64,000 bases of DNA from positions 20,026,001-20,090,000 of the forward strand of contig CM034548.1 in assembly GCA_020055645.1 (NCBI GenBank), given 5' to 3'. Shown here in pieces: positions 60,401 through 63,400 of the stretch. A program made the translations under genes and the position numbers. Each line of letters opens with the position of its first letter. The first letter of the stretch is position 1. The notes under the pieces were generated by a model that searched no databases, was not told the DNA's origin, and saw nothing but the letters and a program-made list of their open reading frames with translations. This DNA is from Tomocerus qinae. Lineage: Eukaryota; Arthropoda; Collembola; Entomobryomorpha; Tomoceridae.

Positions 60401-63400
60401 AATGTTGGCTTTGATGTAATTATGTTCCTTTTTCAAACAGTGGATATTAAATGTACACTTTATATTTTACAGTTGCTGTTCCTTGTCAAGATAGTAGTCA
60501 GTGCTCTGCTGGTTACACTTGTACTGAAGGACTTTGCCTACTTGGTTGTAAATCCGATAGCAGTTGCGCAATGAACGAACGTTGTCTACACGAGAAATGT
60601 TTATGTAAGTATTATAATATTACAAAATATTATGGATACTAATAATTTTCGTACTAATGACTATTTATTTATTTAGTGACTTGCCGAGTGGATAATGATT
60701 GTTTCCTCAGTCACATCTGTCTTAACAACATGTGTGTGATTGGCTGTCGATCAAATGACGACTGCAGTCCGGGAGAAGCTTGTCTTGGACAACGGTGTAC
60801 CAATCCATGTAAAAGTCAGAGCTGTGGTCCTTCTGCTGTGTGCCATGTCCTCAACCACCAACCCAAATGTTCTTGTCAAGAGGGCATGATTCCTAATCCA
60901 ACTCCATTCGTCGGATGTGTTCGTGAGCCCACCGTTTGCTCTGTCAATCGCGAATGCGGAGAAGGATTCACTTGTGATGGTGGATCTTGTAGACCAATCT
61001 GCTCGACCAATTCCAATTGCTTCACCAATGAAATCTGTGACAAGGGACTTTGCAAACCAATTTGTCGAAAGGACGGAGACTGTAGAAGTGGAGAAATCTG
61101 TGAAGGTCTGACTTGTGTCACCGGATGCCGATCTGATTCTGCTTGTCCGGAAAGCACTTCTTGTCTGAATAGTAAATGTATTGATCCTTGCTCATCTCCA
61201 ATTGCTTGTGGAACGAATGCACTTTGTGCTGTGAAGAAACACCAGGTCACATGTAAATGTCACGATGGACTAATTGGAGACGCAAGAATCGGATGTAAAG
61301 CTCCACAATTACCATGCAGTGCTCAAGAATCCTGCCCCAAGGGACTGGTCTGTATTGAAGATGTCTGTCGGAACGCTTGTGGATCGTAAGTCATTCTCCT
61401 CGAATTTTATAGCATTTAAAATGCGACAAGAACTTAATTGTCATTTCCTTTTTAGTGACAATTCTTGTTTGGATAACGAACGTTGTATCGGAGGCGTATG
61501 CAAACCACTCTGTACTAATGATGACCAATGTGGATCTGGACATATCTGCCAAGGACGAGTTTGTTTGTCTGGTTGCAGAACTGATTCACAATGTCCGAAT
61601 GAACTTTCTTGTATTAGCAGACAGTGCAAAGGTAATTTATTGTTCACCGAAGAATATATTATTGACTGTTTATGAATATTTTTATGTAATGATTTCTAAT
61701 TTTTGTTTTTAGATCCATGCAAAGGAAACTTCGCTTGTGGTTCATGTGCAAGTACGTTTTTTTCTTTTGTTTTCTATTATTTTAATGTAGATTCTGAAAG
61801 CATTTTAATAACTACGATTTTTTTCTGTAGATTGTCAAGTGGTAAATCATTCTCCACAATGTAGCTGCCCCGTTGGAAGTTTTGGTAACGCTTTAGTTGC
61901 TTGTAGCACACCTCCAGCTAGATGCAACGGTAATGCATGCCCAGCAAGATCAAGATGTGAAGCAGGATATTGTATTGCTAGTTGTAAGACTTCCGACGAT
62001 TGCTCCTGCGGACAAACTTGCCAGAGTGGTCAGTGTAGTAGCCAGTGTGGAAGCGACGATATGTGCCCTCAAGTTAGTAATTTTTTATGCAAAACAAATT
62101 TATTTCGGATTTGATAAAGTGGTAATAACTTTATAATATTTCTTTAGGGTCAAGTATGTCAACAAGGTCTTTGCACAATCGGTTGCCGTTTGAATTCAGA
62201 TTGTAGCCCTGAAACAGCTTGTATTAATGGCCAATGTAGCGACCCATGCTCTCAAACCAACTCTCCATGCGGCGTCAATGCTCTTTGCAGGGTATTGTAC
62301 TAAATAATTTTGAAATTTGGGACAATTTCATCTTGAACTTTATAATCACGTTGTATTATTTTATGTAGGTATCACAACACAGGCCAGTCTGTCTTTGTCC
62401 GAATGGATTTTTCGGTATGTTATTTGATCGTTAATTCTAAATAGTAATTTTTAAATAATGTATACATGAAATTATACTTACGATGCCGTTTGTGACTTTA
62501 GGTGAACCAAGCAAAGAATGTAAGCAAATTGAGTGCAACGTGGACACCGACTGTAGCTCAGTACAAATGTGTATCCAGGGTAGCTGTAAAAATCCATGTC
62601 TGCAACCAAATGCTTGTGGTATCAACGCACAATGTAAATCGGTCAACAGAAGAGCGAAATGTACCTGTCCTCCAAATCATTCCGGTACTATATAATTGCC
62701 TTTTAAACAACCTGAACTTGTATTGGCAATATATTGAGACAGCTTAAATATTTTTACACCGCTCAAATAATGCGTTACTAAATTAGCGTTTATTTTTATT
62801 TGATATAGGAAATCCGGCGTTGAAATGTGTTATCCGTAAGTTATCCATAATTTAATTATCTATAAAGGGTTTTCTAGGAACTTTAAAATGGAGTGTTTAA
62901 ATCAACTATATGTTATTACAGAGGAAAACGAATGTCTAAGCAATCCTTGTGGGGAAAATGCGAAGTGTATCGATACGGTTTCCGGATTCAGATGTACTTG
63001 TCAAACTGGATGCAGTGGTTCGTGATTTATTATTTTCTTGATTGACGGTTTTGTCATATATATCGTGTGAATGATATTTGCCTATTCAAAGCGTCGATTG
63101 CTAAATGGATCATATTTAATTAATTACCCAGGTGATCCATCAAAGGGATGCGTCTGCAAGGGACACGATGCTTGTGCCAACGTTCGCTGCGGTGTCAATG
63201 CTGTTTGTCAACTTAATCTCAGTACAGGAAAAGGAGCTTGCATATGTCCCGTTAACTATCCATCTGGAGATCCATTACGAGAATGTAATTCAACTTTCCG
63301 TACATTTTAAAATTTTTCAAAACCATGGAAAATATCTAATCATTTTCGTTTCTCTGTTTTTTAGGTCAACTTGAACGCAAGGATGATTGCAGAACTGCTG

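What the first reader, a model, noticed from the sequence alone, without database searches (positions are those of the whole stretch)
60484..62684. Higher-order protein repeat: four short DPY-type modules plus one EGF, about 126 residues, in four consecutive copies
Within exons 40-47 the short C-x5-C-x5-C-x4-C-x3 module (21 residues) occurs in runs of exactly four, each run followed by one EGF of the CGxNAxC type. Units begin at their first Cys at 60484, 60937, 61315 and 61923; the next module run begins at 62534. After subtracting introns the spacings are 381, 378, 378 and 372 nt, that is 127, 126, 126 and 124 residues. Module 4 of each run has its own signature: it starts G-C-R and ends D-P-C or N-P-C. 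So the block of five modules, not the single module, was duplicated. Known Dumpy descriptions stress EGF modules interspersed with DPY modules; a regular 4+1 fibre segment may be lineage-specific and would give a rigid, even-pitched rod.
Basis: partly seen in the sequence, partly recalled or inferred. Interest (0 to 1): 0.7.

Follow-up and report, generated by a model that had tools for sequence, protein, structure and literature searches.

The report
Repeated five-module block in Dumpy protein
Part of the giant Dumpy protein, which in flies ties the skin to the cuticle, is built here from a repeated block of four tiny cysteine modules plus one EGF module; the pattern is real, but the protein is a known one and the block looks old rather than newly invented.

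Summary
After splicing, 60484-62521 holds four consecutive units of four 21-residue four-cysteine modules plus one EGF, spaced 127, 126, 126 and 124 residues. The gene is a dumpy ortholog: N-terminal calcium-binding EGFs, a 20.5-kb Thr/Ser-rich exon, a long DPY-bearing array and a C-terminal ZP domain.

The block is not confined to four copies: two more runs of four (56388, 56895) and an imperfect one (58670) lie about 2-4 kb upstream. The fourth module is the DPY proper; the first three lean weakly towards Pfam DUF7107.

Same-position modules resemble each other across units more than chance (p=0.0005-0.003). Position 4 drives this; positions 1-3 alone give p=0.02-0.04. A tree, with no firm branch, groups by position and not by unit. 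Block duplication is the best reading, but contact with the EGF explains part of the position-4 likeness.

Units share only 36-42% protein identity and no DNA self-match, so the array looks old; "lineage-specific" is unsupported. Rod rigidity is not shown (pTM 0.49). No other arthropod genome could be compared.

The parts
60484..60918 (+). Unit D: short modules at 60484, 60547, 60682, 60745 and EGF from 60808; one intron between modules 2 and 3 (60605-60676)
60937..61296 (+). Unit E: short modules at 60937, 61000, 61063, 61126 and EGF from 61189; whole unit inside one 709-nt exon
   Evidence: AlphaFold2 model of 60916-61317, mean pLDDT 84
61315..61904 (+). Unit F: short modules at 61315, 61378, 61511, 61574 and EGF from 61718 with an extra Cys (CGSCANC); three introns
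61923..62521 (+). Unit G: short modules at 61923 (C-x4-C first loop), 61983 (extra Cys), 62046, 62184 and EGF from 62247; three introns
62534..62684 (+). Single DPY plus most of the following EGF: return to the 1+1 pattern
56388..56876 (+).
56895..57176 (+).
58670..59059 (+). Imperfect unit C: three short modules, a fourth with a long third loop (58865), then EGF from 58943; left out of the position statistics
59983..60376 (+). Run of two modules plus EGF; the second (60046) resembles position 4
46025..64000 (+). Main part of the dumpy gene in the window; EGF exons are also predicted at 41288-42794, and the gene continues beyond the window to a ZP domain at 137665-138499 in window numbering

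Best explanation
This is the N-terminal part of a Dumpy ortholog. A block of three tandem-type four-Cys modules, one true DPY module and one EGF was duplicated as a whole several times long ago, giving four adjacent copies at 60484-62521 and relatives at 56388, 56895 and 58670. Mechanism (inferred): each four-Cys module folds as a small disulphide-pinned beta-hairpin; modules 1-3 are shaped to follow one another, while module 4 is the DPY type that seats on an EGF. The block works as a repeated, inextensible spacer, about 126 residues long, in the extracellular fibre that ties epithelium to cuticle, lying between the calcium-binding EGF arm and the huge Thr/Ser-rich stretch. Shown here: the modules, their order and register, the likeness by position, the Dumpy context. 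Inferred: block duplication as the cause, and the mechanical role.
For: Spacing and module order. Likeness by position and none by unit. The six position-4 modules are tighter than nearly all six-member subsets of a pool made of them and 12 single DPYs of this region (rank 12 of 18564; an earlier pool of 15 that wrongly held 59983 gave 5 of 5005). The following EGFs are also somewhat alike (p=0.008 among 24 EGFs for five units). In a search of the whole genome with unit E, matches that begin within the first 6 residues and run past residue 96 lie only in this gene; of 16 matches in other genes, 13 begin at residue 59 or later, that is, near module 4. Dumpy_DPY has its best stretch on module 4 in 6 of 6 units. 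One hairpin per short module in the model; a solved Dumpy DPY module exists, 1oig. ZP domain 36.4 bits against cut-off 24.6.
Against: Positions 1-3 carry little signal (p=0.02-0.04; 6 of 18 assigned correctly), and units A and B compared alone give none that is significant (p=0.08-0.34). Single DPYs before an EGF also look like position 4 (53130, 59072, 60046 and 58395 score 1.15-1.29 per site), and without the R column the position-4 set ranks only 403 of 18564. EGF likeness falls to p=0.03-0.06 when the pool is limited to 19 EGFs of similar type. Intron positions differ among units D, E, F and G. The tree has no firm branch. Nothing here measures mechanics.
Confidence: 0.58

Rival explanations
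1. No block duplication: the fourth modules look alike because any DPY that docks onto an EGF is held to the same sequence, and runs of four arose by independent growth of single modules.
For: Position-4 modules resemble downstream DPYs followed by xxPC (0.98 per site) and several single DPYs near by (1.15-1.29). Positions 1-3 are weakly distinguished. Without the R column position 4 stands out less (403 of 18564).
Against: Position-4 modules are closer to one another (1.519) than to 12 single DPYs of this region (0.756) or to the downstream ones (0.981). Multi-module run lengths 4,4,4,2,4,4,4,4 never show 3 or 5 (24 of 116280). Positions 1-3 alone p=0.0245 and 0.040.
Confidence: 0.3
2. A recent, lineage-specific expansion of the block.
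For: Descriptions seen of fly Dumpy mention EGF-DPY-EGF triads and EGF-DPY diads, not runs of four (passages of PMC2930355; passages of PMC10895422).
Against: No DNA self-match at E 1e-5 in 46-66 kb with word size 7; protein identity 36-42%, 22-29% outside Cys, among units A, D, E, F, G; introns at unlike places in units D to G. By contrast the downstream array of the same gene holds younger copies (76-87% DNA identity).
Confidence: 0.08
3. The block is a by-product of a wrong splice model.
For: No RNA evidence was available; the model was made by hand and with a simple script.
Against: Junctions are GT-AG, frames stay open, and module spacing and Cys pattern continue across the junctions; unit E lies in one exon.
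Confidence: 0.03

Closest known systems
Drosophila Dumpy (PMC2930355, passages seen)
   Same: EGF and 21-residue DPY modules, calcium-binding EGFs near the N terminus, a repetitive insert, ZP domain near the C terminus
   Different: The passages seen describe EGF-DPY-EGF triads and some EGF-DPY diads; runs of four short modules are not mentioned there. The insert here is one 20.5-kb Thr/Ser/Glu-rich exon
Super-repeat of six EGF-DPY-EGF units, said to occur thirteen times in fly Dumpy (PMC10895422 citing Wilkin 2000; passage seen)
   Same: A higher-order repeat within the same protein
   Different: Made of EGF-DPY-EGF triads, not of four short modules plus one EGF
Pfam DUF7107 (PF23416)
   Same: 48-position profile whose best stretch covers two neighbouring short modules: within modules 1-3 in A, B, E, F, G and on modules 3-4 in D; cut out alone, units A and B exceed its cut-off of 24.6 (30.0 and 35.9 bits), and the exon of unit C does too (29.3)
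   Different: Scores depend on how the sequence is cut: the whole exons of A and B give 16.6 and 16.1 bits, D to G give 19.0-23.1, and the 811-residue spliced protein shows no DUF7107 match at E 1
DPY module structure 1oig (Dumpy, isoform Y)
   Same: Four-Cys module of the same length; matched by a DPY peptide of the classic type
   Different: A single module; a 260-residue stretch with units E and F had no PDB match by sequence

Membership tests
Dumpy | EGF modules interspersed with 21-residue four-Cys DPY modules | tested here: met
   101 regex DPY modules on the + strand, 0 on the - strand, over 214 kb; PF21164 matches over its cut-off along the locus
Dumpy | Calcium-binding EGFs towards the N terminus | tested here: met
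   PF07645 52.9 bits in exon 50867-51283
Dumpy | Long repetitive insert (PIGSFEAST and proline-rich repeats in the fly) | tested here: inconclusive
   A Thr/Ser/Glu-rich open exon, 66207-86741 in window numbering, is there; it was not compared with the fly repeats
Dumpy | C-terminal ZP domain | tested here: met
   PF00100 36.4 bits, cut-off 24.6; CUT_N 24.3, under its cut-off 27; RRKR, a furin-like site by recalled motif, follows
Dumpy | Transmembrane anchor after the ZP domain | not tested
   Exons after 138879 were not resolved
Dumpy | Mostly EGF-DPY-EGF triads | not tested
   Downstream part has separate DPYs; the EGFs between them were not counted
DUF7107 (modules 1-3) | Score over the Pfam cut-off of 24.6 bits | tested here: inconclusive
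   Cut-out units: A 30.0, B 35.9 met; D 23.0, E 23.1, F 21.4, G 19.0 not met. Exon of C 29.3 met. Whole exons: A 16.6, B 16.1, D-E 23.8 not met. Whole spliced stretch: no match
Dumpy_DPY (module 4) | Score over the Pfam cut-off of 27 bits | tested here: inconclusive
   Best stretch is module 4 in 6 of 6 cut-out units; over the cut-off in A 38.3 and G 28.0, under it in B 21.5, D 17.8, E 20.0, F 19.4

The most novel reading that the evidence does not exclude
The array is an ancient, conserved segment of Dumpy with its own module code (three hairpin modules, one EGF-seating DPY, one EGF), and the two odd cysteines, one in the EGF of unit F (CGSCANC) and one in module 2 of unit G, form a disulphide bridge across the shortened module 1 of unit G, making a fixed kink or clamp in an otherwise repeating fibre.
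Probability: 0.2. Interest if true: 0.45.

Novelty: new member of a known kind. Interest (0 to 1): 0.32.

Why it matters
Dumpy is a tension-bearing fibre, and how its module order sets its length and stiffness is, to my knowledge, open. A repeated 3+1+1 block gives a natural test: change the number of blocks and measure fibre length. In a protein usually summed up as EGF-DPY-EGF triads, it also shows an N-terminal part organised differently.

Tried and rejected
Self-trained gene finding over 214 kb overpredicted; only exons of the 46-65 kb part and those around the ZP domain were used, after reading them.

A scan of prokaryotic genome contigs gave one bacterial four-Cys repeat protein at 28% identity, and viral contigs gave none confirmed; neither bears on arthropod history. 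PDB by fold gave no match at E 0.001 or better (229 matches up to E 10; the best were uromodulin and NELL1).

Species: TTAGG repeats are present (185 forward and 216 reverse places), which by recalled knowledge argues against flies; nothing more was established.

From memory I believe fly Dumpy has a similar array, odd cysteines included. Its DUF7107 scores (23.4, 18.3, 25.5, 13.9 bits) were no better than those of the window's units D to G (23.0, 23.1, 21.4, 19.0), so the recollection was not confirmed and is not used as evidence.

Rows left out: unit C (long loop in module 4), the run of two and all single modules were not in the position statistics; for unit B the three residues after module 4 were treated as missing.

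Both weakened the case a little, and the confidence in block duplication was lowered from 0.62 to 0.58.

Full report
What the gene is. The window lies at G000:C3:20026001-20090000 of a 334-Mb genome. A scan of 214 kb found 101 four-Cys modules of the form C-x5-C-x5-C-x4-C on the + strand and none on the - strand, from 47190 to 136611 in window numbering. The gene has calcium-binding EGFs upstream, a 20.5-kb open exon rich in Thr, Ser and Glu (66207-86741), a long array with separate DPY modules, and a ZP domain. It is a dumpy ortholog. The window holds only its first part.

The observation. The spliced protein contains four units of four short modules plus one EGF at exactly the given starts and spacings. 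Fifteen of the 16 short modules have the exact spacing; the exception is the first of unit G. The CGxNAxC motif is strict in two of the four EGFs.

Two further runs of four begin at 56388 and 56895, and an imperfect run at 58670. The 56388 unit is followed by an EGF and is 127 residues from the next run. In the 56895 unit the fourth module runs on as C-x-C-x10-C, so module 4 and what may be the remains of an EGF form one six-Cys domain. The G-C-R start of module 4 holds in these two units as well: 6 of 6 in all, against 0 of 18 at positions 1-3 and 4 of 81 other regex modules of the gene.

Are the four modules of two classes? Scanned as cut-out units, Dumpy_DPY has its best stretch on module 4 in 6 of 6, over its cut-off in A and G only. 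DUF7107, a 48-position profile, has its best stretch within modules 1-3 in five units and on modules 3-4 in D; A and B exceed its cut-off, D to G do not. The result depends on the cutting: the whole exons of A and B score 16.6 and 16.1 against the cut-off of 24.6, the exon of C scores 29.3, and the 811-residue spliced stretch shows no DUF7107 match. By average similarity, module 4 is close to 59 downstream DPYs (0.98 per site), while modules 1-3 are near zero (-0.03 to 0.11). I therefore write the block as 3+1+1 rather than 4+1, with module 4 set apart firmly and the name DUF7107 for the others held loosely.

Was the block duplicated? Position labels were shuffled within units 2000 times. Without position 4 the values are p=0.0245 and p=0.040. 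Units A and B alone are too few (p=0.08-0.34). Assigning each module to a position from the other units is right for 12 of 24: 6 of 6 at position 4 and 6 of 18 elsewhere (all). A 24-module tree needs 8 changes of position label against 13.9 in shuffles, 0 of 200 as low, and 17 changes of unit label against 16.2; no branch is firm. The EGFs after the runs are somewhat alike: five units (A, D-G) p=0.008 among 24 EGFs and p=0.03 among 19 of similar type; D-G alone p=0.02 and 0.06. Run lengths 4,4,4,2,4,4,4,4, the imperfect run counted, are unlikely if runs were cut freely (24 of 116280).

The rival of shared context. Single DPYs before an EGF also resemble position 4. Against 12 single DPYs of this region the six position-4 modules still rank 12 of 18564 subsets, but only 403 of 18564 once the R after the first Cys is left out. 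Contact with the EGF thus explains part of the likeness. Block duplication is the best but not the only reading.

Introns. In units D to G introns fall at unlike places. The EGFs of units A and F and the EGF at 58458 share one site, splitting the codon just before the third Cys in phase 1; since the last of these follows a single DPY, the site speaks for kinship of the EGFs, not of the block.

Age. Units A, D, E, F and G share 36-42% identity, 22-29% outside the Cys columns, and the 46-66 kb stretch has no DNA self-match at E 1e-5 with word size 7. The array therefore looks old, although fast evolution could mimic age. The same gene does hold younger higher-order repeats: four copies beginning near 103.4, 106.3, 109.2 and 112.5 kb, with 79-87% DNA identity in six matched pieces of 0.9-1.4 kb and 76% in one of 0.7 kb (pieces over 400 nt). 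No other arthropod sequence was at hand, so the spread of the block is unknown. One paper states that the organisation of the EGF-DPY-EGF repeats is stable among insects, citing Carmon 2007 (passage of PMC10895422; a look-up for the cited paper, by a DOI from memory, found nothing held).

Elsewhere in the genome. A search with unit E gave 77 matches at E 0.1 or better, a lower bound by the tool's own words. Matches that begin within the first 6 residues and run past residue 96 lie only in this gene; of 16 matches in other genes, 13 begin at residue 59 or later, and three weak ones (E 0.001-0.07) begin at 26-50. Three short stretches, parts of 3 of the 14 that I had asked for, were read (two of them hold two of those three weak matches); their Cys-rich open frames show single DPYs followed by EGFs, not runs of four.

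How it probably works. The AlphaFold2 model of unit E has mean pLDDT 84 with one beta-hairpin per short module and a two-strand EGF; pTM is 0.49, so the angles between modules are not fixed by the model. The hairpin fits what I recall of the DPY structure 1oig (entry found). I infer an extended, disulphide-rich spacer. A rigid rod is possible, not shown.

Two odd cysteines. Units A, D and E have 22 Cys each; F and G have 23 each. The extra ones sit in the EGF of F and in module 2 of G, with only module 1 of G between them, the one short module of the 24 with a contracted first loop. An inter-module disulphide is the bold reading; a crosslink to another chain, or chance, are alternatives.

Literature. 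Seven searches and the passages seen of six papers gave no description of runs of four. Other listed papers were not opened, and the founding paper (Wilkin 2000) is not held, so I cannot say that this is unpublished.

Verdict. A real and correctly measured feature of a known protein, extended here to six or seven units, with the fourth module set apart from the first three. Its novelty is modest and the claim of lineage specificity is not supported.

Noticed in passing
61745-61747 and 62007-62009: An extra Cys in the EGF of unit F and another in module 2 of unit G, flanking a module with a shortened loop; units F and G have 23 Cys each against 22 in A, D and E.
   Followed up: partly
60677-61385, 61456-61631, 61831-62072, 62369-62414: The only 4 of 40 modelled exons whose lengths are not multiples of three all lie inside the array, so none of these can be skipped alone without a frame shift.
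   Followed up: partly
57084-57176 and 47190: A DPY-like module continuing into C-x-C-x(n)-C, that is, a short six-Cys EGF; suggests that DPY may be an EGF without its C-terminal loop, or the reverse.
   Followed up: no
50008-50031, 51665-51688, 60357-60383, 62809-62835, 63614-63640: Micro-exons of 24-27 nt, phase 1, each encoding the tail of an EGF with its last Cys.
   Followed up: no
About 103400-113900 in window numbering, beyond the window (L005 and L006): Four younger tandem copies of a stretch of about 3 kb in the classic DPY array, 79-87% DNA identity in the longer matched pieces.
   Followed up: partly
66207-86741 in window numbering, from L002 on: A 20.5-kb Thr/Ser-rich open exon with internal copies of 1.2-1.4 kb at 97% DNA identity (70898/81350 and 68274/74880).
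   Followed up: partly
L025:4299-5456: A bacterial MAG protein with four-Cys stretches, 28% identical to the query. Giant-virus proteins (pithoviruses, cedratvirus and others) also match the unit E model by fold, 14 at E 0.001 or better, the best E 7.6e-6.
   Followed up: no
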